From a virus, in the IMG/VR virus record IMGVR_UViG_3300009537_000085, positions 1 to 34,931 of that record: DNA of 34,931 nt; one strand, written 5' to 3'. Under the pieces are notes generated by a model that saw only the letters and a list, made by a program, of their open reading frames with translations, made no database searches and was not told where the DNA came from. A program made the translations under genes and the position numbers. Below are positions 2,928 through 34,451 of this stretch, one piece after another (position 1 is the stretch's first letter; each line of letters starts with the position of its first letter).

Positions 2928-3977
2928 CTAGTACTGGACCACCGCCGGGAAGGTGACGCCATCGTCGACCTGGTTGTAGACCTGGGTTCCGACCTGGTCC
3001 TCGCTGATGAGCGCATCAGACGAGTCGTCGCCGCCACCCTGACCGTTGTACAGCTCGAGCTTGGCGATGGAGGCTACGTTGCCGAAGCCCATCCCGATGT
3101 CTTCCCACGCCTGCCACATGACCAGGTTGGCAACCTTGTCGATGTAGAACTTGGTGTTGTTCAGGATGATGAACTTGCCCAGCCAGTCCGGTGCCGTGAA
3201 CCCGTAGACGTTTCCTGTCTGCAGAATGTCGGTCTTCACCGTTCGGATGAACTGACGACCCATCACGGTGTTGCCCGCGAAGCCTTCGACGACCACAGAC
3301 GACTGCTTGGTGTCACCGAAGTCCTCGATGGTCCACCGGAGCATGTCGTTCCAGTCGACCTCGTTGAGCAACACACGTCCGAGACGACGACGGGTACCGT
3401 CCAGCTCGTTGAAGAGCGAGACTAGGTCGCCGCGCTGGATGCGTCCACGGAAGCCCGTACCTGCACCATTGGCGGTCGCATCGTCCGTGGCCTGCTCACC
3501 GCGGACGATTTGGCCCGTAGCCTGAACCGCGGCCTCGGTGTAGACCAGTCCACGGTAGTCCTCGATCTCCTGGATGTCCTTCACCGAGTTGTCCTCGATG
3601 ACCTTGGTGATGGGCATCTTGTAGACCATCAGCTCCTGTTCGAACTTCTCGAACTTCTCAGAGCTGATGGTGAAGATCGGGATGGCGTAGCGCGGCGCCC
3701 TGATGAGCCGCGCATTGGGCTGACCGCGGAAGGTCATGGACATCGCGCGCGAGTTGGGCTCGACCTCGTCGATGTAGATCATGGTGTCGTGCTCGAGACT
3801 GACCTGCAGCTCGGGACGAGTGACCATCTGCGGGGGCAGGATCTTCCGGAAGAACGAGTTCTCGCGGAGCTTGTCACGAATGAACGACTGCGAGGTCGCA
3901 GCTACCTTCTGAGTCCCTTCCTCGGTATCGAGGTGGGTCAGGAAGAGCCTGGTGAGGGTGCTGTGTGCTTCGGGCAT
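2928..3977 (-). CDS. Major capsid protein (HK97 fold, predicted)
   Basis: 349 residues, ATG start with AGGAG eight bases upstream. The protein has the outline of an HK97-type shell protein: a short helical N-terminal arm (1-45), a beta-rich E-loop-like region (about 60-100), a long helix around SSEKFEKFEQELMVYKMP (about 104-121), an alternating alpha/beta core, and a C-terminal region with repeated aromatic and small residues (VYGFTAPDWLGKFIILNN). It lies just downstream of decoration-like and scaffold-like genes, the usual order scaffold, decoration, capsid. Codons mostly end in G or C, fitting very high expression. No other gene in the window fits as the shell protein. The N-terminal arm holds one K-x-A motif (TQKVAA). 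Confidence 0.82.
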   Translation of the reverse strand: MPEAHSTLTRLFLTHLDTEEGTQKVAATSQSFIRDKLRENSFFRKILPPQMVTRPELQVSLEHDTMIYIDEVEPNSRAMSMTFRGQPNARLIRAPRYAIPIFTISSEKFEKFEQELMVYKMPITKVIEDNSVKDIQEIEDYRGLVYTEAAVQATGQIVRGEQATDDATANGAGTGFRGRIQRGDLVSLFNELDGTRRRLGRVLLNEVDWNDMLRWTIEDFGDTKQSSVVVEGFAGNTVMGRQFIRTVKTDILQTGNVYGFTAPDWLGKFIILNNTKFYIDKVANLVMWQAWEDIGMGFGNVASIAKLELYNGQGGGDDSSDALISEDQVGTQVYNQVDDGVTFPAVVQY

Positions 3978-6285: not shown

Positions 6286-7920
6286 CTACTGTAGCAAAGC
6301 TGCAGCAGAAGAAGTGGGGGAGACCTGCGAGCACCAACCAGACGGCAGCTCTACGCAGCTCGGTTGGTATGCGTTGTAAAGGTACAACGACGAGAGCCGA
6401 CCAGACAAGACGTCTCGGTCTGTGACCGCGATCTTTGCCATTTCGTCTGTCAACAACTCACCGAAGAAGTGTTCCTGGTAGTACTCCGGATTCTGCTCTA
6501 CGACAAGGTTCAGTACCGGCGCCAGTTGCCCGAATGCCCCGCGATACCGTGAGTACGCGTTCGCTACCTTCTGCAACAACTCGTCGTCTTCTTCTCCGAG
6601 CTCGGCAGCGGTCTTGATGACCACTACTCGTACCCGTCCTCCTACATGAGGAGAGAATCCAGAGCGTGAGCGGATGAGATGTGACAACGCCTCAGCCAAT
6701 CCAGGAGAGAAGTCGTCCTCTGAGAACGCGGTATGCCCCGTCGGTGAACAGGGTGTAAAGCATCGACCCTCTGACTGAAGCTTTTCGGCTTGGTCGCCCT
6801 TGCCCATGCGGTGCAACATCGCGTACTGGAATTCCCGCGGCTTGGTCACGATACCCATCATGGCCAATGTGGTCAGCAACTTCGAGAGATCACCGCCACG
6901 AAGCACACTGGAAGGTAGGTCCGGTTCGTGCTTCGTGGCTTCATCGAATGAATTTCCCCCCGTGTTCGGGAGTAGTTCCTTGTCGATGTCCGCCTTCTTG
7001 TCCGACGCGGCAGCCTTGCTCGAGCTCGCCATCTTCTCGAGGATTGTCCCTCGGTCCATCTCGACCGGGACAGCACCAGTAGGGAGCTTCTTGCCCGCAA
7101 AGAAGCTGCTGGGAACGAAATAGGAGAGGCTTGGGTCCGAGGCGACCTTCATCAGCACCCCGGATTCCTTGGCAGCTGGGATGAACACATCCGAGATTTC
7201 GAAGAATCTCGGAAAGAAGTTGACGGCCCCCACGATCGTTCCGTCATCGAGAATCGAGCCCATCTGCAAGCGCAAGTGGTCGCAGTAGTCACCCGGTGTC
7301 CTTGAGATGTGCCCACACACGGTGCAGACATCGAACGGGACTTTACATCCCATGCTGATTTGCCTGGACTTGCCCTCATCCAGGTCCTCGAGGATGTCTT
7401 CAGCACCAACAGCCTTGGCCTTCTCTCGATCGTGTCGGACCACGACCTCGACACGATGCATCAACGGGTTCCAGACCGAAAGCACGACCTGACCATAGGA
7501 GAGGCGCGGGTCCTTGTTCACGTGATGGCGGTAGCGCTCGGCACCCTCGAACGTCCGATACCCAAACGTCGTGTAATTTCCGGGCGGGATCTTTTTGCCA
7601 AAAGGCGCTAGCCATCGATCTTCCAGAGCTTTCGCCACCCTCAATGCGTTTCCGTGCTCGAACATGTCGTAGGAGAGCGAAAGAACAGGGAAGATGTCAC
7701 CGTTGACGTTCATCCCCCAGTACTCGAAGGCGCCCATGGGAGTCATCAACACGTACTGGTACCGTGAGTCTGGCCGGAGACTCTTCAGGTAGGACTCGAT
7801 TTTGGGATGCCTGACGCCGGCAATCTTCTCCAAGCCCCCGCCCTTGCGCGTAATGTGCACGGCTTCGGCGAAGCACTGTCCCAGGGTTCCCTGGGTCGAG
7901 AACTGGATGTCCTTCCTCAA
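6286..7920 (-). CDS. Putative prohead (capsid maturation) protease with embedded zinc-binding motif
   Basis: 544 residues from a TTG at 7920 that overlaps the TGA of the gene upstream. No strong ribosome binding site is seen, and no ATG occurs before residue 59. Residues about 55-195 match the pattern of herpesvirus-assemblin-type phage proteases: NVNGDIFP, then HHVNKDPRLSYGQVVLSVWN with candidate catalytic His132 or 133, then QISMGC with candidate catalytic Ser189. Directly after the serine comes C199-x2-C202 with C213-x-H215, a likely zinc site. The C-terminal half is unassigned and carries K-x-A sites (LMKVAS, LEKMAS, VIKTAA, LQKVAN, MAKIAV). Its location upstream of scaffold-like and capsid genes fits head maturation. 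The fold call is by pattern, and the catalytic residues need testing. Confidence 0.8.
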   Translation of the reverse strand: MRKDIQFSTQGTLGQCFAEAVHITRKGGGLEKIAGVRHPKIESYLKSLRPDSRYQYVLMTPMGAFEYWGMNVNGDIFPVLSLSYDMFEHGNALRVAKALEDRWLAPFGKKIPPGNYTTFGYRTFEGAERYRHHVNKDPRLSYGQVVLSVWNPLMHRVEVVVRHDREKAKAVGAEDILEDLDEGKSRQISMGCKVPFDVCTVCGHISRTPGDYCDHLRLQMGSILDDGTIVGAVNFFPRFFEISDVFIPAAKESGVLMKVASDPSLSYFVPSSFFAGKKLPTGAVPVEMDRGTILEKMASSSKAAASDKKADIDKELLPNTGGNSFDEATKHEPDLPSSVLRGGDLSKLLTTLAMMGIVTKPREFQYAMLHRMGKGDQAEKLQSEGRCFTPCSPTGHTAFSEDDFSPGLAEALSHLIRSRSGFSPHVGGRVRVVVIKTAAELGEEDDELLQKVANAYSRYRGAFGQLAPVLNLVVEQNPEYYQEHFFGELLTDEMAKIAVTDRDVLSGRLSSLYLYNAYQPSCVELPSGWCSQVSPTSSAAALLQ

Positions 7921-18258: not shown

Positions 18259-18939
18259 CTAGATGAACGCCCCGGTATTGACAATACCGCTTACTGGGCT
18301 CCCTCCCCCAGTGCCCGTGTAGGTGACGATCGCGACCACACTGCCCAAGGCCGTTGCCCAAGCTTGGGCAATTCCGTCTAGGTGACTGGCAAGCTGCGCA
18401 TTGATGGGCGCACCAAATACATCCCCAGAGCCAAAATGTCCGTTCGCGAGGACAGCTGCAGGTAGCGTAGCCCGCAGCTGCAATAGTGCCTTGGCCGCCA
18501 AGTCTGGATTAACAGCGGGCGAGACCACTCCTTGCCCTGTTCCTAGACCAGGGTTTGGAATCATCTGGATGAGGCCTATCCCCGTCAACCGGTCGAGCGG
18601 CGCTTGCACCAGAGAACCCACCGCCTTGTTCGTTAGGGGCCCGTTCCACCCTTTGGAGTTGATGAACGTGCTAACCGCGGCCGCTGTACCCGGGAAGCTG
18701 AAGTTTGCGGGCGCGGGGATGCCAGTCACGTCGCTCGTACCACTTCCAAGGTCTTGTACAACCAGGTTCTTGACCGCGTTGACCAAGCCCGCGCACAGAG
18801 CACGTACTAGCTCTGTCGCCGGGTTGTGCGCAGGCATCCCGGTCTCCGGGTTCCTGCGTACCACTGCACTGGACTGCGGGAATACCGAGAGATGGTCTGC
18901 CAGAACCAAGGAGAACAAGGTTTCGGAAGTGATGGCCAT
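18259..18939 (-). CDS. Hypothetical virion-type protein, Ala/Gly-rich
   Basis: 226 residues. The ATG overlaps the stop of the spike gene (TGATG), indicating coupled translation. The protein is rich in Ala, Gly, Val, Pro and Asn, with few charges (SFPGTAAAVSTFINSKGWNG, VTYTGTGGGSPVSGIVNTG), as in structural proteins forming repeated assemblies. No Cys pairs and no K-x-A motif. Tight coupling to the spike suggests a tail-tip or baseplate component, which remains an inference. Confidence 0.87.
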   Translation of the reverse strand: MAITSETLFSLVLADHLSVFPQSSAVVRRNPETGMPAHNPATELVRALCAGLVNAVKNLVVQDLGSGTSDVTGIPAPANFSFPGTAAAVSTFINSKGWNGPLTNKAVGSLVQAPLDRLTGIGLIQMIPNPGLGTGQGVVSPAVNPDLAAKALLQLRATLPAAVLANGHFGSGDVFGAPINAQLASHLDGIAQAWATALGSVVAIVTYTGTGGGSPVSGIVNTGAFI

Positions 18940-20498
18940 CAGCTCGAGTCCGGAGTGAACGTGCTCGCGAGTTTCACGGCCTGAATGCCTGGTAGGCCTC
19001 CGGCTGCCACTGAAATCGATCCCAAGATGGGGGCGCCGGTCACGAAGTCGACTGGGTGAGTGAGTGTGGTAACCACCAATCCTCGTCCAGGCGGGCCCAG
19101 GTTGACGGTACCTGCGTTGTCCAAGCTGATTTCTCCGGCCGCAGTCTTTATCCGAACGCCTGTGTTGTTGACTTCAACTACCGCCACCCCCTGAGTGGAA
19201 ATGACCTTGATGGCCCCGCTGGGCTTGACTCGAATTTCCGCCAAGGGCTTGTCCTGGGTGAGGCCCGACGAAATCCGGAGCTCTCCAAGAATGTTGTGAA
19301 CGACGTAGTCTCCGATGGCGACCGTAATGCCTCCTGCCTCGTCCTCTTTCTGTGAGTTGGCAATGAATAAGGTCGACCGGCCGCCAACCTTGACGTGGGA
19401 ACCCGTACCCACACCTCGATGGTACTCGTCCCCAATAAATTCGTTCTTCGAACCCACTACCTGCTCAACAACCGTACCTTCGACGACTCGGTCTAGGCCT
19501 CCTTGTACTTCCTCTGTGATGTGCGCAGCCACGCGCTTCACCGACCCGGTCACAGTTTCCTGCAGGTCTCCTCCGACCGCGACTACACGGTCCCGCCTGA
19601 CCGTAAGCTGGTCACTCTGCTTGGTCTCGACCACGCGATTTCCCGCGACTGTACGATACACGCCTCGAATTTTCTCGAAGAACGAGCCTTGCGTGAACTC
19701 CGACCTCGAGCTGTTGTAGGAATGCGTTGACCTTCCGTGAACATAGCTCTGAACATTCCCGTCGCGGTCGACCCAGTAGCGAAACCGGTTGTTGATCAAG
19801 ATTCGGGCTATCACCCCTCCGAGCTTGCCATTGACAACCCGTTCGTCGTCCTCTTCAGCGATTCGACCCAACCCCAAATCAATGATGGGGTCGTCTTGTG
19901 CGAACTCTTTGAGCTGAAGCCGCAATTCCACGGGCGTGCGAAGCTGTCCGTGGGACTCGTCCTCTCTCCTGCTACGAAAAGAGAGCTTGCCTCCGGTTGT
20001 AAGCAGCTCGTAGTTCTCACACAGGTCTCGGATGACGTTGCTCAACGGGATGTACACCCGCTGTGCAACCTGGGTCGCACCTACTTCAATGACCCCGCCC
20101 CTTCGCATAATCAGGAAATTACCATCCTTCGAAGAGAGCTCCATGTCTCCTTCGTTTAGAACCGGACGGTTCATACGGAAGTCGTTCGGGTCGGACTCGT
20201 CATCTTGGCCGAGTTGCGCAGGCTGGGCGCACCCGCCGAGAATCATCGGAACCCGGTCAACGGAAGGGAACAACAGCCAGACGATGCTGTTGACCTCTGG
20301 CATCCAGAATATCCCTCCCCCCTCCGTGTTCACGTAGACGGGCATGACCTGGATGCCTTCGTAAGTCCCTCCCGTCTCGTCGATGACCGTGCACCTGTAC
20401 TTGCTCGTATCCACGTATACAACCCGAGCTCTGACGAGCTTGACCGGTCCGATTTCGTCGTAGATGGGGGCGCGGGTGGGGCGATGAGGGAAGTTCAT
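18939..20498 (-). CDS. Baseplate or tail-tip spike protein (OB-fold plus beta-helix, gpV/gp5-like)
   Basis: 519 residues, ATG start, no strong ribosome binding site. Residues about 17-92 show the beta-barrel pattern of spike OB-fold domains (VRARVVYVDTSKYRCTVID, FWMPEVNSIVWLLFPSVDR, MILGG). A connecting region follows. From about 260 on there are short repeating beta-strands with Val/Thr/Gly alternation (VVETKQSDQLTVRRDRVVAV, GGDLQETVTGSV, AAGEISLDNAGTVNLG), consistent with a trimeric beta-helix. Proteins of this form pierce the host envelope in contractile-tailed phages and related systems. No sheath or tube gene is in the window, so tail type is not proven. One K-x-A site lies near the end (VKLAST). 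Confidence 0.85.
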   Translation of the reverse strand: MNFPHRPTRAPIYDEIGPVKLVRARVVYVDTSKYRCTVIDETGGTYEGIQVMPVYVNTEGGGIFWMPEVNSIVWLLFPSVDRVPMILGGCAQPAQLGQDDESDPNDFRMNRPVLNEGDMELSSKDGNFLIMRRGGVIEVGATQVAQRVYIPLSNVIRDLCENYELLTTGGKLSFRSRREDESHGQLRTPVELRLQLKEFAQDDPIIDLGLGRIAEEDDERVVNGKLGGVIARILINNRFRYWVDRDGNVQSYVHGRSTHSYNSSRSEFTQGSFFEKIRGVYRTVAGNRVVETKQSDQLTVRRDRVVAVGGDLQETVTGSVKRVAAHITEEVQGGLDRVVEGTVVEQVVGSKNEFIGDEYHRGVGTGSHVKVGGRSTLFIANSQKEDEAGGITVAIGDYVVHNILGELRISSGLTQDKPLAEIRVKPSGAIKVISTQGVAVVEVNNTGVRIKTAAGEISLDNAGTVNLGPPGRGLVVTTLTHPVDFVTGAPILGSISVAAGGLPGIQAVKLASTFTPDSS

Positions 20499-20500
20499 GG

Positions 20501-20743
20501 TCAGGGCTGAACGTCGTAGACGGTGTCCCCTATATTCAGGGCTCTAGGGACCGGTGTATCGAAGTCCCATCGAGAGCATAGACCACAACCAACACACTGG
20601 TAGTAGACGCCCGTTTCTACATCCCAGAGAAAGGACCGGTCATCTCCATTCAAGTCCCATGAACAACGAGGACACCAGGCGTAGGAGGTCCTATGCGTAC
20701 CTTGCCAAAGCGCAGACCACCGCGCCAACAACCTTGCGAGCAA
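20501..20743 (-). CDS. Small zinc-ribbon protein directly downstream of the RNA polymerase gene
   Basis: 80 residues from a TTG at 20743, with AGGAG six bases upstream. Longer versions of the frame run back into the polymerase gene and have no good start. The N-terminus is a short amphipathic helix (LARLLARWSALWQG). Two Cys pairs follow, C24-x2-C27 (WCPRCSW) and C50-x2-C53 (QCVGCGLC, with an extra Cys at 56), separated by aromatic beta-strands: a zinc ribbon. It begins 20 bases after the polymerase stop and touches the spike gene. The ribbon and location allow a transcription-partner role, but a structural zinc protein is equally possible. Confidence 0.8.
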   Translation of the reverse strand: MLARLLARWSALWQGTHRTSYAWCPRCSWDLNGDDRSFLWDVETGVYYQCVGCGLCSRWDFDTPVPRALNIGDTVYDVQP

Positions 20744-20762
20744 TGTTGTCTCCTCTAGAAGG

Positions 20763-23700
20763 TCAATACTGACCCTTCCACTCGTCCCCAAGCACTTTCC
20801 TGCCCTTGCCGAACTCGGTCGCCTGAGCAGCAGCAGGAATCGGGTGGAAGCCGTGGATGTTCGTTGCCCAACCCTCACGAGCAGCCTGGGTCAGAGTCTT
20901 GTTGAGCTTCTGGAAATTGAGCCTGGCCATCCAATCCTCCTGCATCTCCAATGGCAGGATGTCCACGCCCTTTAGAATCGGCGTGTGAAGGACCGGCTTC
21001 TTCGCCTTCTTGTTCCAAGCACGGACGACCGACGTAGGCCTGAGGTCCCCAGGCAGCCAGTCAGGATGCTCGCCCGGGTCGTCCACGCGCGTCACGTTCG
21101 TCAAGGCCTTGGACAAGACCTCGGCATTGCGTCGACGCACAGGCACGGCCGTCATCAGCACACGCTGCAGCTCGGACGCGATGTAGTCCTGAACAGCCTG
21201 AATCCCTCGGAGATGAAGCAACTCGCGCGGGTCGACCGACCCGTCGGACAATGCCTCTCCCTTCTGTACGATGCCCCTGAGCTTGACTGTCCTAGTCTGG
21301 TCTTCTGGGATGTAGTGCTCCTTGCTGCCGATGTATACAAGCTCACCGCCCTGCGGCGCCTTGACGACCTTGGTGACCCGTCCTGTAGTCTTGGCTAGAG
21401 GGGCAGCACCGGGCAGGTTCTTTGGCATCCTGAGGACATGCTGGAGTCTGACAAACATGTCCTTGGATTCCGCTCCCTTCCCTCGAGCTAGGCCTCCGGT
21501 GTGGAAGACCCGAAGTGACAGCTGGGTTGCCGGTTCTCCGATGGCTTGACCCGCCATTACGCCCACGTTGTCTCCTACGTCGTAGGACTTGGAGCCCGCA
21601 GCCAAGCCCATGCACTTTTGGCAGACTCCGTGCTTGGCCTCACACCGCATGGGTGAACGAACATACAACGCCTTCTTGTTCATCTTCCTGGCTGCTGCTA
21701 CGAGGACAGGAGTGACCAACACACTCGCGCTACCGGCCGTATACCGGTCAAGGATGTCTGGGTCATCCAGGTCGAGCCAAATCCCTTGATTGGTACCGCA
21801 ATCCTTCTCTGTAACAAGCAGGTTCATGGTCGAGTTGATGACCTGCTTGGACATGTAGCCCGGGTCTCGCACACCCTGAACCTTCTGCAAGGTCCCCTTC
21901 CTGGCCCCGTGGAGGGTTGTCCAGTACGATGCCAGGTCCATTCCCTCAGAATAGGACTTGGGAATCAGGTACGGCACTACACGGCTCTTCGCGTCCATGA
22001 CCAGAGCGGGGGTCGAAACAATTTGCTTCAACTGTTCCCTGCTCCCTCTTGACCCGGAGTCAACCATCATCGAGATGTTGGTAGGCGCCCGGTCAAAGGA
22101 CATGGCATTGATACGGTCCAACTCTTCGTTGATGACCTGGTAGATTTCTACGATTTTCTTGTCTTGTGCCTTGCGTCCCAACGAAGACTGACGAATCTTC
22201 GCGGCCTTTCGCTCAGCTCCGTGAATCAGCAGGTCTCGATTCTTCTTCCCTACGACCGAGAAGTCATCGAGGCCGATGGAAAAGCCCACGGATGTGCTGT
22301 ACTCGTTGCCGAGGTTGAGCAACGCGTTCGCGACTTCCCCGTACCGGTTCTCGTAGTGCTTAGCGACGTGCGTGAGCACCTTTTTGGTCATGCCCTTGTC
22401 GAACACACGCATCTGGGACAAGGGCTTCTTCCCAATCTCCCGCAACTTCTCGGGGAGCGCAGCCTCGATGCGCAGCCGCCCCAACGTGGTTTCGTGCCCG
22501 CCCACGGTGATGATGTCCGTGGCTTTGATATCCCCTCGACGCTCAGCCGAAATCGCATCAGCCACATGTCGGTACTTCTTGTCTGTCTTCTTCCCGGGCT
22601 GTGAGAGCAGGTACAACCCCAACAGGGCCTCGTGACCCGGCGTGTACATGACTGCCCCGGTCGTAGAGCTGAATAGGTTGTTGCTTGGGAAGAGATTGTT
22701 GGCTTCCTTCACCGAAGCCTCACGAATCGGCAAATACACGGACATGGCGTCCCCATCGAAATCCGCGTTGTAGCCCGAGGTCACGAGCGGGTGGATTTCG
22801 ATGGCTTTGCCTCCGATGAGTCGAGGCTTGAAGGCCAGTACATTGAACTTGTGAAGGGCTGGGTCCCTCTTCAGGAACACGGGCCTGGACTCCATGGCGC
22901 GCTCAAGCGCCTTCTCCGCGGCCGGGGTTCTCGAGGTTACTGCGTCCGACGCGTCCATGGTTTTGTAGCCCTGGCGTACAAGCTCGCGCTCGATGAACGG
23001 CCGATACATCTCCCAGGCAATATCTTCCGGAAGTCCCAGCTCATCCAAACCCATTCTGGGCTCGGGTGTGATGATTGAACGACCAGAGAAGTCCTGTCGA
23101 CGCTTGAGCAGCCGCTTTTGGAAGTACCCGGTCTTCGCCGAACCCGAGTCACCACCAGTAGGCTTGCGAATCTTGCCTGAAATCAGGTCCAGCACGCCAC
23201 GCCATTCCCTGGTCAAGGAACCACCCGTTCCGGTAAAGGCCTTGAGCCCGTCGTAGAGTTCTTCGCGGAGCTCTCTCAACTGCTCATCTGGCATTCCAAT
23301 GTGCTTGTTTGCACCAAGCGCCTCGTTCGTCGCCGCAATCTCTTTGTAGAGCCCATTCAAGTCATCGGTCGAGAGCCGTCCATCATCCCTGACGACCACA
23401 GGGCGAAAGACCGGGGGAATCACGGGTACGGACTTCATCATGTAGACCGTAGGGGACAGGCCTTGGTCGTCGAGTGCCCGCAGGATTCGGAGTTGCGCAT
23501 GCAGCTTCGCTCGCGTGGACTTACCCACCCGTTTGATTTTCTCCTCGAGCGCTGCTCTCTGCTTCTTGACGTCGACTTGCTTGAGCAGCTCTTGAAGGGC
23601 AGCACCGCCGGCCTTGCCATTGACCTTCTTGTCGCCACGGATGTACGCGTCGTATTCCCGTTGAGTAATGCCCAAGAGTTTCTTGATCGCACTCTCGAAC

Positions 23701-26700
23701 AACGGGTTCGGCATGGGCTCAGACAACGTGAAATGGGCCCAACGCATACCTTCCTTCCCTCCGGTAATTGTCGGGTCGAAAAGGCCCCCCTTCTCGGGAA
23801 TCTTGTCCTTGCCTCGATAGATTAGTCCGGGTTCCTTGAGTTCTCCACTCGAGAGCGAGCGGACCTGCTCTTCGGTGAATGGAACGAGAACCAGGTTGTT
23901 GCCTTCCTTCTTGACGTTCACCCGCAACGCGTTCAGGTATTTGAGAAACTTGTCGTACGCAAAGGGGACCTTCGGCGTAGGGATAGGCGTTCCCTCCCGA
24001 ATCGCATCCCAGAGCTCCTCGTTTTTGTTGCTCTTGTAAGCAAACATCTCATGCAGGTTCTCGCGCGCTCCGTGCGCGAGCATGGCATACATGCCGAGCT
24101 CGCCCAAGGTCTGCCCACCATGAGGAGCTCCGCCCGAGGGGGCATGATTGATGTCGTAGTGAGCTCCTGGACCGCCCGTACCCGACCTGGCGGACAACTT
24201 CTTTCCTACCTGATGCTTCAGCTTGAGGATGTACTGGTTGCCTACCAAGCCCTTTTGGTCGAAGGGCTTGCCTGTATCAGGGTTGACCAGCTCAACCTTG
24301 TCCTCGATCCCTTGCTCCTTCATCTCCTTCTTCAAAGACTCCAGGTAGTCTTTGCCTGGGACAAAGTTACGGACCAGATAGGGCTTTCCTCGTTCTTCTG
24401 CGATTTTTCCTGCTACGGTCTCGAGGATTTGCCCGAGGTTGATTCGGCCAGGCACGCCCAGGGGATTCAGCGCAACATCCAGGTGCTCCTTCTCTCCTTG
24501 TTCATCCTCGGTGTAGGGCATTTGCGCATTCGGGATAATGCGGGTGATAACGCCCTTGTTCCCGTGCCGACCGACAATCTTGTCCCCGACCTGTGCAGGT
24601 TCTTCGGTCTTGATGTTGACGACCAGGTCCTTACCCGACCTGGAAATGTCAGTCACCGCTCCCTTGTAGGGCAGGTCCCAGGTCAAGGACGCGTCACGCA
24701 TCTTCAACGGTCGACCACGCCTAAACTTGCGAATCTGCTTTCTATAGATGGAGTCCTTGGGTTTCCGAACAGCCAGAATCAGCGGGTCACCTTCTTCGAC
24801 GGTTGCGCCCACTTGGATGATGCCGTCAGGTCCAATCTTCTCCAGCTGCTGTCGAATGTACGCATGTGGATGTTGTGCCAAGAACTTGGAGCGACCCACC
24901 TTCGTGTCCGGGTCCCTGGTCAGGCTCTTGTTGTACATGTGCAGCGAAGTCAGTTTCTTCGCTGCCTTCTCCGAAATGACGATTCCATCTTCGAAGTTGT
25001 ACCCGTGGAAGGGCAGGTAGCCCACTCGTAGGTTCGTACCCAACGCGAGCTTGCCGTCGCGCGTAAACGTACTGTCCACGAGTAGCTGACCTTTCTTGAC
25101 CTTGTCGCCCTCCTTGACCAGCACCTCGGAGTCGTAGAGAGAGTGCCCCTTAAGTGGAAAGTCCTTGTAGAACTGCACCTCGTACTTCTTCGACCCGGAG
25201 CGGATGACTACAGCATCGGACTTGACCTGGTCGACCACGCCGTTCACGGGAGAGCGTCTTGAGGCATAAGTACCCAACAGTTCCTCGAAAGACTGGTCTC
25301 GGTCTGTTTGTACCTGAACAAGAGGCGCCTCTCGTTCCTTCAACGGAACAGCCTGTTCCTGTTGCCTGGCCGCAACCATCGTTCGGTTGCCTTGATTGTT
25401 CTGCAGGAACGGAATGAGGTTGGAGGCTACTCCAAAGACCGAGCGAGGGCTGGGGATGATGTAGTCGACCTTCGAGGGCTGGACGTGAACAATCTCTCCT
25501 TCATGCGTGGCCTTCACCAAGTCCCCTCGAGGTACGAGTTTTCCGTGCTTCCGCTCGTACTGGTCTGGGAAGGCCACTACCGACTTCACGGCCTTTCCGG
25601 GGTCAATGCGTTCGGCCCGATTGGTCTTGGCATTGACGACCAGGCTACGGAGCTGATTACCCTCCTTCTTGGTACCCAACGCCAGGACCAAGGAGATACC
25701 GGTCTTGTCTCCCTCGGGGGTGTGAATGGGGTCAAGGAACCCCAAATGCGAGGGGTTGATGAGCTTGGCCTCCTCGCTGACCTGGAAGGGGGACTTGATA
25801 CCTCCCTGCTCCCCCATGATGGTGGTCTTCATCCGCCCGGCCAGCATCTCCAACGGATTGACTTGCTCAGGGGTGTCAACCAGTGACGTGCCAAAGAACC
25901 CACGGATGACTCGGTCGAAGTCATCTGCGTTGATGACGTTCTTGAGATTGCGCTTACGTCGAAGTTTCTGAACCAGCCTGCGCTTCACCTTCGACGCCGC
26001 GCGCTTGAGCTGCCCATCCAACAGGTCTTCGAACGAATGGATGGTCTGGAAGCCCAGACTGGTCTTGTCATCTACCTCTTCGTCTCCTCGAGAGATGTCG
26101 AGGAGCTTCTTGGTCGAGCGGACGAGCGTATCAGGTTCGACCGCCTTGTACTCCTTGTCCAAGGTTTGCCAGGTTGTCTCAGGCAGGAGTTTGGTGTGCT
26201 TGAGAAGCGTGCTGAACAATGCCGCATGCTCGTCCGGATTGGTCGGCTTCGTGCCGTGCACAGCACGGTAGAACCTGGAGTACACGTCCTTGGCTGACGT
26301 CCGCTCCTGGTTCTTCTTTAGGATTTCCCGGCCCCACGCTTTCTCTAGCGTCTGGTCATCAACGCCTGCTCCTCGAAGGAGGTGGTAGAGGGGGATTTCG
26401 CTCGTCTTGTGCGAGAGGTAGAACACGCCCTCCGAGGGCGTGAAGTTGATTTTGAAGTCCCGCCCGTTCACAAGCTGTTCAGGGTTCCCGAGGTTGAACT
26501 CGGAACGGAGAACCCCATTCCTGGCAAGCGTGTGGTAGACCCCGGGCTTGAGCCGGAATTGGTTGAGTGTCTGGTACTCAGTCCCGTTGACAATGTACCC
26601 AAAGCGCTGAGTGGTCTTCGGGAGATGCATGAGCAAGATGCGTCGCCTGTCAATCTCCTTGTCGTTCCGCTTGAGTGACAGGTTCGCATAGACTGGAACG

Positions 26701-26891
26701 GCCCAGGTCGATCCCGTTTTCAGCGCCTTCATCTGGCTCCGCAGATCCTCTGAGTCCGTGCGGTCTTCGATGTCTACGCTGTTGAGAACGATTTCTACAT
26801 TCTGACCCTCGATAGGGAAATACCCACGGATGGTTTCTTTGATTTTGGTCTTCAGAGCATCGAACTGCTCTTCTGGGGTCAGGAGGGCCAT
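20763..26891 (-). CDS. Single-chain multisubunit-type RNA polymerase (beta fused to beta-prime)
   Basis: 2042 residues from the ATG at 26891. An in-frame ATG at 26918 is possible, and neither has a clear ribosome binding site. The first half is RpoB-like: NPLEMLAGR (345-353), INPSHLGFLDPIHTPEG (378-394), LPFHGYNFEDGIVISE (626-641), GDKIVGRHGNKGVI (769-782), LNPLGVPGRINLGQILET (809-826). The chain crosses without a break at about 1030-1055 into RpoC: PVIPPVFRPVV, RRQDFSGRSIITPEPRMG (about 1264-1281), the Mg-binding NADFDGD (1375-1381), bridge-helix and trigger-loop regions (SGSRGS, LHGARKG), the second zinc site (C1698, C1750, C1757, C1760) and the C-terminal LRGIQAVQDYI region. The N-terminal RpoC zinc finger is absent. 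No alpha, omega or sigma is seen. It sits between portal and spike genes. Confidence 0.98.
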   Translation of the reverse strand: MALLTPEEQFDALKTKIKETIRGYFPIEGQNVEIVLNSVDIEDRTDSEDLRSQMKALKTGSTWAVPVYANLSLKRNDKEIDRRRILLMHLPKTTQRFGYIVNGTEYQTLNQFRLKPGVYHTLARNGVLRSEFNLGNPEQLVNGRDFKINFTPSEGVFYLSHKTSEIPLYHLLRGAGVDDQTLEKAWGREILKKNQERTSAKDVYSRFYRAVHGTKPTNPDEHAALFSTLLKHTKLLPETTWQTLDKEYKAVEPDTLVRSTKKLLDISRGDEEVDDKTSLGFQTIHSFEDLLDGQLKRAASKVKRRLVQKLRRKRNLKNVINADDFDRVIRGFFGTSLVDTPEQVNPLEMLAGRMKTTIMGEQGGIKSPFQVSEEAKLINPSHLGFLDPIHTPEGDKTGISLVLALGTKKEGNQLRSLVVNAKTNRAERIDPGKAVKSVVAFPDQYERKHGKLVPRGDLVKATHEGEIVHVQPSKVDYIIPSPRSVFGVASNLIPFLQNNQGNRTMVAARQQEQAVPLKEREAPLVQVQTDRDQSFEELLGTYASRRSPVNGVVDQVKSDAVVIRSGSKKYEVQFYKDFPLKGHSLYDSEVLVKEGDKVKKGQLLVDSTFTRDGKLALGTNLRVGYLPFHGYNFEDGIVISEKAAKKLTSLHMYNKSLTRDPDTKVGRSKFLAQHPHAYIRQQLEKIGPDGIIQVGATVEEGDPLILAVRKPKDSIYRKQIRKFRRGRPLKMRDASLTWDLPYKGAVTDISRSGKDLVVNIKTEEPAQVGDKIVGRHGNKGVITRIIPNAQMPYTEDEQGEKEHLDVALNPLGVPGRINLGQILETVAGKIAEERGKPYLVRNFVPGKDYLESLKKEMKEQGIEDKVELVNPDTGKPFDQKGLVGNQYILKLKHQVGKKLSARSGTGGPGAHYDINHAPSGGAPHGGQTLGELGMYAMLAHGARENLHEMFAYKSNKNEELWDAIREGTPIPTPKVPFAYDKFLKYLNALRVNVKKEGNNLVLVPFTEEQVRSLSSGELKEPGLIYRGKDKIPEKGGLFDPTITGGKEGMRWAHFTLSEPMPNPLFESAIKKLLGITQREYDAYIRGDKKVNGKAGGAALQELLKQVDVKKQRAALEEKIKRVGKSTRAKLHAQLRILRALDDQGLSPTVYMMKSVPVIPPVFRPVVVRDDGRLSTDDLNGLYKEIAATNEALGANKHIGMPDEQLRELREELYDGLKAFTGTGGSLTREWRGVLDLISGKIRKPTGGDSGSAKTGYFQKRLLKRRQDFSGRSIITPEPRMGLDELGLPEDIAWEMYRPFIERELVRQGYKTMDASDAVTSRTPAAEKALERAMESRPVFLKRDPALHKFNVLAFKPRLIGGKAIEIHPLVTSGYNADFDGDAMSVYLPIREASVKEANNLFPSNNLFSSTTGAVMYTPGHEALLGLYLLSQPGKKTDKKYRHVADAISAERRGDIKATDIITVGGHETTLGRLRIEAALPEKLREIGKKPLSQMRVFDKGMTKKVLTHVAKHYENRYGEVANALLNLGNEYSTSVGFSIGLDDFSVVGKKNRDLLIHGAERKAAKIRQSSLGRKAQDKKIVEIYQVINEELDRINAMSFDRAPTNISMMVDSGSRGSREQLKQIVSTPALVMDAKSRVVPYLIPKSYSEGMDLASYWTTLHGARKGTLQKVQGVRDPGYMSKQVINSTMNLLVTEKDCGTNQGIWLDLDDPDILDRYTAGSASVLVTPVLVAAARKMNKKALYVRSPMRCEAKHGVCQKCMGLAAGSKSYDVGDNVGVMAGQAIGEPATQLSLRVFHTGGLARGKGAESKDMFVRLQHVLRMPKNLPGAAPLAKTTGRVTKVVKAPQGGELVYIGSKEHYIPEDQTRTVKLRGIVQKGEALSDGSVDPRELLHLRGIQAVQDYIASELQRVLMTAVPVRRRNAEVLSKALTNVTRVDDPGEHPDWLPGDLRPTSVVRAWNKKAKKPVLHTPILKGVDILPLEMQEDWMARLNFQKLNKTLTQAAREGWATNIHGFHPIPAAAQATEFGKGRKVLGDEWKGQY

Positions 26892-26906
26892 GCGTTTAGA
26901 CTGCCA

Positions 26907-26923
26907 TATTTCCCGCATAAGTG
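26907..26923 (+). promoter_or_regulatory. Candidate promoter element (CATAAG) between RNA polymerase and mini-operon
   Basis: TATTTCCCGCATAAGTG. CATAAG (26916-26921) ends 46 bases before the plus-strand start at 26967. Read on the minus strand it is CTTATGCG, 25 bases before the polymerase ATG, so either direction is possible. Confidence 0.45.
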
Positions 26924-27134: not shown

Positions 27135-27169
27135 TCTACGGAGGCTTGGTCGGCCTGTCGTTGATCTAG
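27107..27169 (+). CDS. 20-residue single-span membrane peptide, plus strand
   Basis: An ATG at 27107 lies inside the 3' end of the preceding small gene in another frame, directly after a purine-rich ribosome binding stretch (GAGGAGAGGAG). The peptide, MVVIFILALIYGGLVGLSLI, is hydrophobic from end to end and long enough for one membrane span. Its TAG stop and the TAG of the convergent portal gene share the palindrome CTAG (27166-27169). Paired with the charged protein before it, it could be a tiny membrane effector, but nothing more can be said. Confidence 0.42.
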   Translation: MVVIFILALIYGGLVGLSLI

Positions 27170-29064
27170 ATCACCTGATTCTCACGTCTTGGAGGCCGTT
27201 GCTCGGGTAGCGGTTGCTGCCCGAGCGCCTTCTCCACCGATATCTTCTGTTGAATCAGGGCCTTGAGCTGTGGGTTGGAGCCACCAATCCGCTCAAGAGC
27301 GACAGCTTGTTCCTCCGGAGCCATGCGTGCGATTTTTTTCGCCCAAGCTTCGGCCATGTCAATGACGTTCATGTGCTGAACCCCGCCAACTTCTTGGGTT
27401 GGCATGTTCTCCCCCGGCTGTGCTTCCGAACCCATAGGCTGCTGACCTTGCATCATCCGCTGTTGCGCAGCCTGCATCTGCTCCTGGATGCGCAGTTGGA
27501 ACTTGGCTCCGACCTGCTGGGCCTCCCCTTCGATGCCCGCCCGGTAGAGCGCATCCAGCTTCTCGACCTCGAGGCGCTGGCGGAGCTCCTTCTCGATGAG
27601 TCTGAGCTCGTCAACAGAGTCAAGGTCGAACTCAGCAAGCAGGGTCTTGTCGCTGACCTTCTTAAGTTGGTTGAGCGACAGCAGGAGTTGGCGTGCCTGC
27701 ATATCGTCTGCCATCTTGAAGGCCTTCATGTGCACACTCACGGGCTTCCACCCCATAAACCGAGAAACCCGAGGAATTAGAAAGTGCGTGAGGAAGTGGA
27801 TGTGCCGATTCCGGTAGGTGAGAAACTCGTTTTCGAGCATGCGGAGCGACACGCTCGAGCCTGTCCAAGACAAGCCCCCGAATACAAACTCTTGCGGCAC
27901 GTCCATGCCCGCCACGATGTGTTCGGACCAGGTTCGGATTTCCTGTGTGAGCATCAACGCCCGGCCATCCCCACCCACGCGTTGTACACCCACAGGTAGG
28001 GGCAAGATGGGCTTGTAGTTCGGGTCCCACTTCCACTTGACGAGCTCGGCCTCGATTCTGCGCTTCCAGTCTGCGAGGTTCACACCCAAATACGGGTTCG
28101 CCATGTCTGAGCCGCTCGCCGGATAGAAGATGTCGAGCGGTACCAGGTGCTCGAGCATTACAGCTTCCTGCGCCTTCTTCATGATTTGCAGGTAGAACGA
28201 GTCCTTCAACGCCGGAAGGATGGGTGGGTAGCCCCACCCAGCATCATTTGCGGCCAGTGAGGGCGTAGGGGCCTTGAAGTGGTAGATATTGTTCGGGTGA
28301 AGAACGACCGGGCGCTTGGTCTTCATGGCCTGGACGAACTCGTGAGGTGTCTCCTCCAGGTACCGTTGCTTCTTCTGCAGGATTTTCTTCCGGATGACAG
28401 ACGGAACGTTGTACGCGTATTCCTTCCGCTGAGTCAGAGGGTTGAAGTCGATGTCGATGTCTTGCGGATTCCACCGAACGAGCTTGATTTCCTTGTAGGA
28501 CCGGTAGTACTCGTCCTTGACCTCTGCAGGGGCTGTGACCCCGCAGAAGGGGCATGACAGGATGTACTTGAAGTCGCGGAAGTCCCAGTCCTTGCGGAAC
28601 CGAAGCTTCTTGATTTTTTCTCTTCTCTTACACGCCTGACAGCGGAGGAACTTGTGGAACGGGAAGAGGATGGAGACCAAACAGTTCCCGTACCCGTAGT
28701 AGTCAAGTCCAACCTCGACCTGGAACTCTTGGATGTTCAAGGTCGTAAACAGGCAGTCTTCCCATCGCTCCCTGTTCTTGTTAAAACCCTCGGCTCCGTC
28801 GTCATCGATGATGACCTTGGTGACGGGGTAGGCCGACATCTTCTTCGTGACCGAGCTGACCAACGGATTGAGCAGCACATGGTACCGACATTCATTGAAC
28901 AGGTGCTTGACCGTTGACGGTAACGACATGTGCGCCACGTCCCACCAGGGGGACGGATAGCGGAAACCGTTGTTGCGCGCGTCGAGTGACCCGTAGCGGA
29001 AACCTGAGAAGCGGTAATCAGAAGGTCCGAACCCGCCCGTTTGTAGCCCAGTGAATCCAGCCAT
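27166..29064 (-). CDS. Portal protein with inserted zinc ribbon
   Basis: 632 residues. The ATG follows the TAG of the previous gene without a gap. The layout fits a phage portal: an N-terminal region with WWDVAHMSL and HLFNECRYHVLLNPLVSS, an alpha/beta core, the stretch IPHFKAP-like NNIYHFKAPTPSLAAND, a long helical stem (PQEFVFGGLSWTGSSVSLRM), and a Gln/Met-rich C-terminal coiled region. A zinc ribbon with C142-x2-C145 and C171-x2-C174 is inserted at about 140-175 and is unusual for portals. It would form the dodecameric ring through which the terminase packs DNA. It is followed by the RNA polymerase gene rather than by protease and capsid genes. I am confident of the call on overall pattern and context. 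Confidence 0.88.
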   Translation of the reverse strand: MAGFTGLQTGGFGPSDYRFSGFRYGSLDARNNGFRYPSPWWDVAHMSLPSTVKHLFNECRYHVLLNPLVSSVTKKMSAYPVTKVIIDDDGAEGFNKNRERWEDCLFTTLNIQEFQVEVGLDYYGYGNCLVSILFPFHKFLRCQACKRREKIKKLRFRKDWDFRDFKYILSCPFCGVTAPAEVKDEYYRSYKEIKLVRWNPQDIDIDFNPLTQRKEYAYNVPSVIRKKILQKKQRYLEETPHEFVQAMKTKRPVVLHPNNIYHFKAPTPSLAANDAGWGYPPILPALKDSFYLQIMKKAQEAVMLEHLVPLDIFYPASGSDMANPYLGVNLADWKRRIEAELVKWKWDPNYKPILPLPVGVQRVGGDGRALMLTQEIRTWSEHIVAGMDVPQEFVFGGLSWTGSSVSLRMLENEFLTYRNRHIHFLTHFLIPRVSRFMGWKPVSVHMKAFKMADDMQARQLLLSLNQLKKVSDKTLLAEFDLDSVDELRLIEKELRQRLEVEKLDALYRAGIEGEAQQVGAKFQLRIQEQMQAAQQRMMQGQQPMGSEAQPGENMPTQEVGGVQHMNVIDMAEAWAKKIARMAPEEQAVALERIGGSNPQLKALIQQKISVEKALGQQPLPEQRPPRRENQVI

Positions 29065-31234: not shown

Positions 31235-31681
31235 ATGAGTCTTTACGACGCCCTACGCGAGGGGAGTTCTAGACATGAGAGTAGCAAGCGCGGGTCCTCG
31301 AAGTACAACTTCGTTGGCAGTAGTGGCAGCTCCTCGCGTCTGCGCGTTCCCTCTCGCACAAGGGCGGATGATGATGACGACAGGCGTGTTGTCCGCATCC
31401 GCGGCACCTCAACCCCCAAGAAGAAGGCAAAAACTCTTGCACCAGAACAGGTTGTAGAAGTCGACCGCGAAGAGGACCTCGATCGGCCGTGGGCTTACCC
31501 TCCTCCACGTCATGGGCAGGATACGCACGAACACTACCGCCGACCCACGATCGGAGAAATCCTCATCGATCTGCTGCTTAGGATGCTGGAGATGGCAATC
31601 GCGGCCGCAGCTCAAGAGATCGTCTACTACTTTGCCTCCCGGCGCTTCACCCCCCGGCACGGGGGCTACGTCAGGAGTTGA
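31235..31681 (+). CDS. Hypothetical protein with low-complexity N-terminus
   Basis: 148 residues, ATG with GGAG nine bases upstream. The first half is Ser/Arg-rich, with a run of five Asp, then basic and Pro-rich linkers, and is probably disordered. Residues about 104-133 form a hydrophobic helix (IGEILIDLLLRMLEMAIAAA, then QEIVYYFAS) that could be amphipathic or membrane-associated. It is the first gene of the rightward operon at the right end and is followed after nine bases by a hairpin. No family recognised. Confidence 0.82.
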   Translation: MSLYDALREGSSRHESSKRGSSKYNFVGSSGSSSRLRVPSRTRADDDDDRRVVRIRGTSTPKKKAKTLAPEQVVEVDREEDLDRPWAYPPPRHGQDTHEHYRRPTIGEILIDLLLRMLEMAIAAAAQEIVYYFASRRFTPRHGGYVRS

Positions 31682-31689
31682 CAACCAGT

Positions 31690-31729
31690 GCTTGGCCACG
31701 CCAGTCCTATGGGTTGGTTGTGGCCAAGC
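31690..31729 (+). terminator. Hairpin after the first rightward gene, possible terminator or attenuator
   Basis: GCTTGGCCAC (31690-31699) and GTGGCCAAGC (31720-31729) form a perfect 10-bp stem with a 20-base loop, starting nine bases after a stop codon. No T-run follows, so it may attenuate transcription or protect the transcript end. The rest of the 132-base intergenic stretch (31682-31813) shows only a CAATAAG sequence at 31771-31777. Confidence 0.55.
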
Positions 31730-31813
31730 GTTGATCATGTGGGCAGTCTAAGATACCTCCTGGTATCACTCAATAAGACCTGCTATCTCTTTCTCTCCCA
31801 ACCGGGAGGGGTC

Positions 31814-31993
31814 GTGCCTGGACAAGAAGATCCTGTAGACGAATGGGTGCAGATTCCTCTACGGGTCAGGCCTGATAAAAAGGCCAAGCTCGACCTCCTC
31901 CACGAACGCACTCGAGTACCCAGAGCCGTGCTTTTGCGCGAAGCGCTGGACGACCTCCTGCACAAGTACGACCTCCTGTCTGGGGGGGAGTAA
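31814..31993 (+). CDS. Ribbon-helix-helix (Arc/CopG-type) DNA-binding protein
   Basis: 59 residues from a GTG at 31814, with GGAGG four bases upstream. A longer frame to 31688 runs through the hairpin and has no ribosome binding site. The pattern is a short beta-strand (VQIPLRVRP), a helix (DKKAKLDLLHERTR), a turn (VP) and a second helix (RAVLLREALDDLLHKY), as in small ribbon-helix-helix repressors. Its stop overlaps the ATG of the next gene (TAATG). With the XRE protein after it, it probably forms a transcription-control pair for this operon or for the divergent virion block. Targets are unknown. Confidence 0.85.
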   Translation: MPGQEDPVDEWVQIPLRVRPDKKAKLDLLHERTRVPRAVLLREALDDLLHKYDLLSGGE

Positions 31994-32391
31994 TGCGCAA
32001 GAGCTTGGGTGAGATCATCCATGAAGAACGGACGGGGAACCCGTTGTTCCGCACGAAGAAGTCTCTGGCCGACGCCGTGGGCGTGAGCCTCGAGTACATC
32101 CGCAGGATCGAAAACGGGAGCTCTGTTCCCTCGGGAGAGGTACTGGATAAGATTGTGACTGCCTTGGACATGTCGGGGCAGATTGCTCAACGGTGTTGGC
32201 GCAGACTGGCCGAGCATCAACTCGACGACCAGGTATTGATGCACGTCTCACTCAAAGACAGAGGGCTGACCAACGGACAGGTCGAACGGGTAGCACACAA
32301 GGTCGCGGAGTGGATGAGTCTCTACTACGCGTTGGACGAAGAAGAGGGGCACAACCTGGAACAGGAAGTCACTCAACTACTGAGGGGGTAG
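31993..32391 (+). CDS. XRE-family helix-turn-helix regulator
   Basis: 132 residues. The ATG overlaps the preceding stop and has GGGGAG just upstream. Residues about 22-60 (KKSLADAVGVSLEYIRRIEN, then GSSVPSGEVLDKIVTALDM) are a typical Cro/C1-type helix-turn-helix. The C-terminal 70 residues are helical and acidic, probably for oligomerisation. Such proteins act as repressors in phage switches. No integrase or antirepressor is seen here, so lysogeny is not implied. It is translated with the ribbon-helix-helix gene and followed by the helicase. Confidence 0.9.
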   Translation: MRKSLGEIIHEERTGNPLFRTKKSLADAVGVSLEYIRRIENGSSVPSGEVLDKIVTALDMSGQIAQRCWRRLAEHQLDDQVLMHVSLKDRGLTNGQVERVAHKVAEWMSLYYALDEEEGHNLEQEVTQLLRG

Positions 32392-32393
32392 CA

Positions 32394-33746: not shown

Positions 33747-33749
33747 GCG

Positions 33750-34451
33750 ATGGATGCGGACATCAAGTACGAGCGCATGGTCGCTCTAAGAGAGAAGTGG
33801 ACAGAGTGTGAACGATGCACACTCTGTGACCCTCCGGGGCGAACGCGGCTCAACGTGGTCTTCGGCAGTGGGAACGTGGATGCAGACCTGGTCATCATCG
33901 GCGAAGCCGCCGGCGACAAGGAAGACCGAACCGGAGAGCCATTTGCGGGTAGAGCCGGAGAGCTCTTCGATAAGTTCATGGAGACCTTCAACATTCATCG
34001 TAGCGAGGTCTTCATCTTGAATCTGGTGGGCTGTCGTCCGACCAAGGCCGATGACCCGAACAAGAACCGCGCGCCCCTCAAGGACGAGATTGCAGCCTGT
34101 CTGCCCAGGGTCCACGCCATCCTAGACATCGTAGACCCGCTGGTCATCCTCCTTCTAGGCAACTACGCGATGAAGGCCCTGACCAAAGAGAAACGCGGTA
34201 TCACCACCATCGCCAGGCATCCACACAAGCCTCGACTGGAGGTAACGACCCCGGGCAGGTTCATTCCCGTTACTCGCGTTGGGTACGCGACCTTCCATCC
34301 CTCCTATCTCCTACGCAACGGAGACATGCACGAGGGCTCGGACATGCACCACGCGTTCCTGTGCTGGCAAAAGGCGATCAAGACCGTAGACACGTACAAG
34401 CAACTGTACTTTGGAGAACCCTTGCCACTCCGCGGAGACACCAATGAGTAG
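33750..34451 (+). CDS. Iron-sulfur uracil-DNA glycosylase (family 4-like)
   Basis: 233 residues, ATG four bases after the helicase stop. The N-terminal Cys pair C20-x2-C23 together with C95 (GCRPT) and C117 (IAACLP) matches the four ligands of the 4Fe-4S cluster in family 4/5 glycosylases. Motif A is GEAAGDKEDRTGEPFAG (51-67), with the Glu-rich spacing typical of family 4, and the uracil-binding motif is HPSYLLR (183-189). It would remove uracil from DNA. Phage and host versions exist, and the phage role is usually genome repair. Its end overlaps the next start (ATGAGTAG). Confidence 0.93.
   Translation: MDADIKYERMVALREKWTECERCTLCDPPGRTRLNVVFGSGNVDADLVIIGEAAGDKEDRTGEPFAGRAGELFDKFMETFNIHRSEVFILNLVGCRPTKADDPNKNRAPLKDEIAACLPRVHAILDIVDPLVILLLGNYAMKALTKEKRGITTIARHPHKPRLEVTTPGRFIPVTRVGYATFHPSYLLRNGDMHEGSDMHHAFLCWQKAIKTVDTYKQLYFGEPLPLRGDTNE

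What the first reader, a model, noticed from the sequence alone, without database searches (positions are those of the whole stretch)
20763..26891. Canonical beta and beta-prime RNA polymerase in one chain, encoded among virion genes
Seen: one frame of 2042 residues carries nearly all RpoB landmarks followed by RpoC landmarks, including NADFDGD, with no internal stop. Known: phiKZ-like phages split these subunits and package one polymerase; crAss-like phages and SPbeta YonO have single chains but with diverged, minimal cores; Helicobacter and Wolbachia have fused rpoBC. A phage chain this close to the bacterial type is unusual. Inference: lying between portal and spike genes, with no sigma, alpha or omega in the window, it may be packaged and injected to transcribe early genes.
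Basis: partly seen in the sequence, partly recalled or inferred. Interest (0 to 1): 0.9.

Follow-up and report, generated by a model that had tools for sequence, protein, structure and literature searches.

The report
Single-chain phage RNA polymerase, probably packaged
This phage carries a full-size bacterial-type RNA polymerase with its two big subunits joined in one protein and encoded among its capsid and tail genes; the same enzyme, together with a dedicated promoter-recognition factor, was found in purified particles of a related Salmonella phage, so these phages probably bring their own transcription machine into the cell.

Summary
It is not rare. At least 101 non-redundant viral contigs carry the same full-length single chain, nearly always with the portal gene upstream and the terminase gene downstream on the same strand. 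It is not a recent host capture: with a split-gene sister lineage (Salmonella phage Arash, Vibrio phages D69/D148/D181) it forms one clade far outside the bacteria sampled. It probably falls in, or close to, the published mReC group (not directly tested). Packaging is supported by a relative: published mass spectrometry of Arash particles found its RNAP pieces Gp206 (most spectra of any protein) and Gp216, plus sigma factor Gp10. Gp10 belongs to a divergent sigma family that I find in 24 of 29 relatives of at least 100 kb, while no alpha or omega homologue is detected. The residues by which bacterial RNAP grips sigma are replaced. Best reading: a virion RNAP made of a single-chain core plus its own co-packaged sigma, injected to transcribe early genes. 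Injection, promoters and activity are untested. New variant of a known kind.

The parts
20763..26918 (-). Single-chain beta-beta' RNA polymerase gene (2,051 aa from 26918; preferred start 26891 = 2,042 aa)
   Evidence: start supported by relatives' alignments
23910..26891 (-). Beta (RpoB-like) part, residues 10-1003; no SI1, no SI2
   Evidence: residue map to E. coli RpoB; AF2 pLDDT 84.6, Foldseek best TM 0.80 to a bacterial RpoB model, then solved bacterial beta chains
23871..23909 (-). Junction beta/beta' (about residues 1004-1016), practically no linker; never broken in the loci examined, including the split lineage
20766..23909 (-). Beta' (RpoC-like) part, residues 1004-2051; N-terminal Zn1 domain and SI3 absent
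   Evidence: AF2 pLDDT 87.9, Foldseek best TM 0.86 to bacterial beta'
22749..22769 (-). NADFDGD Mg-binding motif, residues 1384-1390
   Evidence: three Asp in 22/22 single chains, 3/3 Arash-type, 8/8 bacteria
24984..25004 (-). Beta GYNFEDG motif (E813/D814 of E. coli), residues 639-645
24552..24590 (-). Beta VGDKIVGRHGNKG motif (K1065/K1073 of E. coli), residues 777-789
21492..21539 (-). Trigger loop, residues 1794-1809 (Q1799, H1806 conserved)
21612..21800 (-). Second zinc site, cysteines 1707, 1759, 1766, 1769 (E. coli beta' C814, C888, C895, C898)
23244..23351 (-). Beta' clamp helices (sigma2 dock), residues 1190-1225; bacterial sigma-contact residues replaced
27166..29064 (-). Portal protein gene, directly upstream
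   Evidence: 27-30% to Arash portal Gp204 and Vibrio D69; portal upstream on same strand in 169 of 197 loci, 10 lacked it despite >4 kb upstream
18939..20498 (-). Spike/gp5-like protein gene, downstream
   Evidence: weak Pfam gp5/Phage_base_V; conserved in L002-L005
11315..13165 (-). Large terminase subunit
   Evidence: PF05876 / phrog_675; 30% to Arash gp1
2928..3977 (-). Major capsid protein (HK97 fold)
   Evidence: phrog_2522; NCBIfam capsid_Caudo_2 below cut-off; 31% to Arash Gp226
6286..7920 (-). Probable prohead protease-containing protein
   Evidence: weak phrog_18299; 36% over 237 aa to Arash gp222

Best explanation
The gene encodes a one-polypeptide core RNA polymerase: complete beta and beta' joined end to end, with no detectable phage alpha or omega partner. 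It is made late with the virion proteins, packaged, and delivered with the DNA. In the cell it pairs with a phage sigma factor of the Gp10 family, also packaged, and transcribes the first phage genes independently of host sigma factors. Joining the two large subunits would remove the need for the alpha dimer that normally assembles them. Shown here: the fused ORF, conserved catalytic site, predicted fold, phylogeny, gene order, absence of detectable alpha/omega, and the conserved sigma family in relatives. Shown by others in a relative: RNAP pieces and Gp10 sigma in purified particles. Inferred: packaging in this phage, injection, pairing of core and sigma, early transcription, rifampicin resistance.
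For: Domains and bit scores. The 17 catalytic and second-zinc-site residues checked are the E. coli ones: beta R678, E813, D814, K1065, K1073, R1106, H1237; beta' R425, D460, D462, D464, Q929, H936 and four Zn2 cysteines. AF2 halves match bacterial beta and beta', TM 0.80 and 0.86. Portal upstream on the same strand in 169 loci, TerL downstream on the same strand in 87/87 (not deduplicated). Arash particles: Gp206 128 unique peptides, 100% coverage, 3,516 spectra (most of any protein); Gp216 40 peptides; sigma Gp10 24 peptides, 100% coverage; the second Arash sigma Gp196 is not listed (PMC10585845). Window and Arash share RNAP, portal, TerL, MCP and protease homologues. Gp10-family sigma in 24/29 records of at least 100 kb, sigma70 regions 3/4 by Pfam, SigA in the PDB at 6e-16; its gene lies beside homologues of Arash tail-module genes gp8 (G017) and gp12/gp13 (G014). 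Alpha 0/32 (13/14 controls), omega 0/32 (14/14 controls). One RNAP locus per genome in 32/32. Sigma-contact residues invariant in the 8 bacteria (R271, R275, R278, E295; beta F906, G907) are replaced.
Against: Packaging was measured in Arash, whose RNAP is split and only about 30% identical, not in any single-chain member. Its authors note that abundant enzymes may carry over, and their list of 116 proteins includes replication and metabolic enzymes. The sigma gene is not in this window and was not found in 5 of 29 long relatives (some may be fragments). With one polymerase per genome, it could equally do middle or late transcription. Very diverged alpha or omega, or host alpha, cannot be excluded by profile search. 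No promoter motif was found.
Confidence: 0.75

Rival explanations
1. Non-virion polymerase: the chain is made during infection to transcribe middle or late genes, with host RNAP doing early transcription; its presence in Arash particles is carry-over.
For: Only one RNAP per genome; the Arash authors raise carry-over; the Arash list contains replication enzymes such as primase and ribonucleotide reductase.
Against: It is encoded amid head/tail genes on the same strand in nearly all relatives; Gp206 has 128 unique peptides and more spectra than the major capsid protein, while a second phage sigma (Gp196) is not listed.
Confidence: 0.2
2. It works as a host-like enzyme that borrows host sigma and host alpha/omega, i.e. 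a decoy or replacement large subunit in a hybrid polymerase.
For: The overall fold is bacterial; clamp helices are present; no phage alpha/omega found.
Against: Residues that bind host sigma at the clamp helices and flap tip are replaced across the clade, and the beta' Zn1 domain is lost; the phages carry a dedicated sigma; all of beta and beta' is present in one chain.
Confidence: 0.05
3. Recent capture of a bacterial rpoB-rpoC fusion (Helicobacter- or Wolbachia-type) from the host.
For: Fused bacterial rpoBC exists; NCBIfam fused beta/beta' models are the top hits by bits.
Against: Scores are far below those models' cut-offs (626 vs 5,372 and 542 vs 4,632 bits); about 30% identity to sampled bacterial RNAPs; the tree puts the phage clade on a long, fully supported branch outside the sampled bacteria. 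Helicobacter and Wolbachia themselves were not in the tree.
Confidence: 0.02

Closest known systems
Salmonella phage Arash RNAP Gp206/Gp216 with sigma Gp10 (and Vibrio phages D69, D148, D181)
   Same: Same clade in the RNAP tree; portal-small protein-RNAP order in Arash and D69; homologous portal, TerL, MCP, protease; same sigma family in Arash and D69. Particle mass spectrometry in Arash.
   Different: RNAP split into two or three ORFs inside beta' (about residue 1475 and, in relatives, about 1100); some with homing endonucleases in the gaps; the window's is one chain.
mReC, multi-subunit-RNAP-encoding Caudovirales (Weinheimer and Aylward 2020, PMC7481178)
   Same: Caudovirales contigs with beta and beta' close enough to cells to align, branching outside bacteria; one member of this clade (L247) comes from the sample of two mReC representatives (3300017989).
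   Different: The passages I read treat beta and beta' as subunits and mention fusion only for crAssphage; sigma and alpha do not occur in the text. Detected mReC capsids were PF07068, which the window MCP does not match. Sequence identity with mReC contigs could not be tested.
phiKZ/AR9-type virion and non-virion RNAPs
   Same: Multisubunit-type phage RNAP, one of the two packaged; no alpha/omega (background knowledge).
   Different: Those are split into 4-5 or more polypeptides and come as two enzymes (PMC7598289); here there is one chain and one enzyme. AR9 matches this chain only over 11% at 25% identity.
crAss-like virion RNAP and P23-45 gp96 tail-tape vRNAP
   Same: Single-chain two-barrel virion RNAP; P23-45 gp96 transcribes pre-early genes (PMC10770324, and references therein).
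   Different: Highly diverged minimal cores (mReC authors found no COG0085/COG0086 match for crAss); here both subunits are nearly complete and a sigma family accompanies them.
Helicobacter/Wolbachia fused RpoBC
   Same: Beta-beta' fusion.
   Different: About 2,840-2,890 aa, cellular and with alpha/omega (background knowledge); the window scores about 12% of the curated cut-offs of those models.

Membership tests
Two-barrel (beta/beta'-type) RNA polymerase | NADFDGD motif and conserved catalytic residues in both barrels | tested here: met
Two-barrel (beta/beta'-type) RNA polymerase | Fold of both halves | tested here: met
   predicted models only:
Bacterial core RNAP (RpoB/RpoC equivalog) | Score over curated rpoB and rpoC cut-offs | tested here: not met
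   397 vs 801 bits and 515 vs 963 bits
Bacterial core RNAP (RpoB/RpoC equivalog) | Beta' N-terminal zinc-binding domain (C70, C72, C85, C88) | tested here: not met
   absent in 22/22 single chains and 3/3 Arash-type
mReC Caudovirales RNAP | COG0085 and COG0086 matches with score at least 80, length at least 800 aa, NADxDGD | tested here: met
   met with the equivalent NCBIfam/Pfam models, COG models not run; criteria
mReC Caudovirales RNAP | Falls outside cellular RNAPs in a clade with phage hallmark genes | tested here: met
   only bacteria, no archaea or eukaryotes, in my tree
mReC Caudovirales RNAP | Direct grouping with the published mReC sequences | not testable with these tools
   sequences not identifiable by name in the collections; only a shared sample id (L247)
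mReC Caudovirales RNAP | MCP PF07068 and TerL PF03237 (seen in the 8 and 17 mReC contigs with a Pfam hit; not definitional) | tested here: not met
   window MCP no Pfam hit, TerL PF05876; Arash TerL hits both PF05876 and PF03237
Virion RNA polymerase (vRNAP) | Present in purified virions | not testable with these tools
   reported for relative Arash; not measured for this phage
Virion RNA polymerase (vRNAP) | Encoded with virion genes | tested here: met
Virion RNA polymerase (vRNAP) | Transcribes early genes after injection | not testable with these tools
   experiment needed
phiKZ-type RNAP | Beta and beta' split into several polypeptides; separate vRNAP and nvRNAP | tested here: not met

The most novel reading that the evidence does not exclude
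A widespread phage lineage packages a complete two-piece holoenzyme, a single-chain beta-beta' core plus its own dedicated sigma70-family factor and no alpha or omega, and injects it to start infection independently of the host polymerase. This would be a separate plan of virion transcription from N4, phiKZ/AR9, crAss-like and P23-45 phages, with the beta-beta' fusion ancestral to the lineage and later re-split inside beta' in the Arash branch.
Probability: 0.55. Interest if true: 0.78.

Novelty: new variant of a known kind. Interest (0 to 1): 0.62.

Why it matters
It joins two published but unconnected observations, a deep-branching Caudovirales RNAP lineage known from metagenomes and abundant RNAP plus sigma in particles of an orphan Salmonella phage, into one testable model, and names isolated phages (Arash, Vibrio D69) in which to test it. 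If right, it gives a natural one-chain, alpha-free, full-size bacterial-type core enzyme with its own sigma: useful for asking why alpha and omega exist, and a candidate rifampicin-insensitive transcription tool. It also bears on how old and how frequent the acquisition of cellular polymerases by phages was.

Tried and rejected
Recent host capture: rejected by tree and bit scores. A second (non-virion) polymerase in relatives: none detected at this sensitivity. Alpha and omega: none detected, controls positive. Sigma by Pfam region 2 alone: only 8/32; region 4 led to the divergent family, which an alignment then found in 28/45 records. Sigma homologue inside the window: none (best E = 0.24). 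Promoter motif by k-mer enrichment upstream of crude gene calls in the 110-kb relative G003: nothing convincing. Branch order of the Arash lineage against the single chains: FastTree 0.89, IQ-TREE SH-aLRT 50, left unresolved. tRNAs in the window: none. Earlier description of fused beta-beta' phage chains of this type: none found in the open-access library searched, which is incomplete.
Full report
WHAT IS THERE. The frame is on the minus strand at 20763-26918 (2,051 aa). Pfam and NCBIfam show beta domains followed by beta' domains. It scores below the equivalog cut-offs for bacterial rpoB and rpoC, but far above the archaeal rpoB model (142 bits), so 'canonical' should read 'bacterial-type, about 30% identical'. 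The window is a linear 34,931-base IMG/VR record, evidently a fragment, since relatives run to about 200 kb.

ANATOMY. Aligned to E. coli with 22 single-chain phages, 3 split-type phages and 8 bacteria, the window keeps all 17 catalytic and second-zinc-site residues checked, including beta E813/D814, K1065, K1073, R1106 and H1237, beta' R425, D460/462/464, and trigger-loop Q929 and H936. The first zinc-binding domain of beta' is gone in all 25 phage sequences. Inserts SI1, SI2 and SI3 are absent. Clamp helices are present, but the residues by which they hold sigma in bacteria (R271, R275, R278, E295) are replaced, as are beta flap-tip residues F906 and G907. In the rifampicin pocket the window has D516E, S522E, H526G, R529K, S531T and I572S, from which I infer resistance (untested). 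Beta runs into beta' with practically no linker. AlphaFold2 models of the two halves (pLDDT 84.6 and 87.9) match bacterial beta and beta' with query TM-scores up to 0.80 and 0.86.

HOW COMMON. Scans of viral contigs returned hundreds of relatives. After removing duplicates, the single-chain set holds 101 full-length single chains, 11 partial single chains consistent with contig ends and 3 with a broken frame. One of the three is crossed by TGA codons, several aligned to tryptophan, so that phage probably reads TGA as Trp. The Arash-type set is split in 25 of 32 loci, the other 7 being partial; the breaks lie only inside beta' (about residues 1100 and 1475), and the beta/beta' junction is intact in every locus that covers it. 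The simplest reading is that the fusion is ancestral and the splits derived, although the branching order between the two lineages is not resolved.

PHYLOGENY. The window is sister to L010 (68% identity) inside the single-chain phages. All of these plus the Arash type form one clade separated from eight (FastTree) or seven (IQ-TREE) bacterial rows and two fused MAG sequences by a long branch (support 1.00 in FastTree, 100 SH-aLRT in IQ-TREE). Archaea, eukaryotes and Helicobacter/Wolbachia fusions were not included, and long-branch effects are possible.

NEIGHBOURS. Portal lies upstream on the same strand in 169 of 197 loci; 10 of the rest lacked a detectable portal despite more than 4 kb of upstream sequence, and the others have less upstream sequence than that. 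TerL lies downstream on the same strand in all 87 loci where it was found (loci not deduplicated). Window and Arash share homologous RNAP, portal (27%), TerL (30%), capsid (31%) and a protease-containing protein (36% over 237 aa). Portal similarity in annotated phage records is confined to Arash and three Vibrio phages.

PARTNERS. One RNAP locus per genome in 32 of 32 records; no alpha and no omega, with positive controls. Pfam sigma region 2 finds few, but region 4 led to a divergent family of about 240 aa with sigma70 regions 3 and 4 that matches SigA structures at 6e-16. An alignment of six members, Arash Gp10 included, finds it in 28 of 45 records and in 24 of the 29 viral records of at least 100 kb. 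In G017 its gene lies beside a homologue of Arash gp8 and in G014 beside homologues of gp12 and gp13, tail-module genes next to Gp10 in Arash. Because Gp10 and four of the relatives' proteins were rows of the alignment, their own matches are by construction; the other matches are not.

PACKAGING. In purified Arash particles (PMC10585845) Gp206 has 128 unique peptides, 100% coverage and the most spectra (3,516), Gp216 has 40 peptides, Gp10 sigma 24 peptides and 100% coverage; the other sigma, Gp196, is not listed. The authors themselves allow carry-over of abundant enzymes, and the list of 116 proteins contains obvious non-structural ones.

MECHANISM. Committed reading (0.75): late-made, packaged, injected single-chain core that starts early transcription with its own sigma; the fusion replaces the assembly role of alpha. 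Shown here: ORF, residues, model fold, clade, gene order, sigma family. Shown in a relative by others: presence in particles. Inferred: everything about injection, pairing and timing.

KNOWN OR NEW. The mReC paper (PMC7481178) described a deep-branching Caudovirales RNAP lineage; by its operational criteria this gene would qualify, and one member of my clade comes from the sample of two of its representatives (L247), but direct identity was not testable and the capsid family differs. The passages read there mention fusion only for crAssphage, and the words sigma and alpha do not occur. Hence new variant of a known kind.

Noticed in passing
L075:9990-16060 (IMGVR_UViG_3300025602_000002): RNAP frame interrupted by in-frame TGA codons, several aligned to Trp of the window protein; its sigma-like match also holds one TGA. 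This phage probably reads TGA as Trp.
   Followed up: partly
L013, L078, L079, L083, L084, L193, L200, L213, L253: RNAP ORFs of about 2,340-3,010 aa, longer than the usual 2,016-2,160; probable inteins or insertions.
   Followed up: no
L133:2962-10944, L007:17962-25013, L006:14962-26130: In the Arash/Vibrio lineage the RNAP gene is split by homing endonuclease or unknown genes; the main break near window residue 1475 lies where cyanobacterial rpoC1/rpoC2 part.
   Followed up: partly
L100:6897-13814, L101:1560-7688, L108:7452-13883: Single-ORF RpoBC-like genes (2,043-2,306 aa) in Nitrospirae, Jettenia and UBP16 MAG contigs; L100/L101 branch between bacteria and the phage clade. Nature of these contigs not determined.
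   Followed up: partly
window 20501-20878 minus: Small ORF overlapping the end of the RNAP gene with a CxxC...CxxC zinc-ribbon-like pattern (WCPRC...CVGC); not present at this place in L004.
   Followed up: no
L002 and L005, about 5-9 kb in the locus: Between portal and RNAP, opposite-strand genes that look like a MoxR-type ATPase and a vWA-domain protein interrupt the module (judged by eye from translations).
   Followed up: no
L005:22860-25751: Terminase ORF of 964 aa with an insert and a weak LAGLIDADG match: probable intein.
   Followed up: no
window 31235-34929 plus: Divergent genes: HTH protein, ResIII/DEAD helicase, uracil-DNA glycosylase family protein; arrangement conserved in L004.
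   Followed up: no
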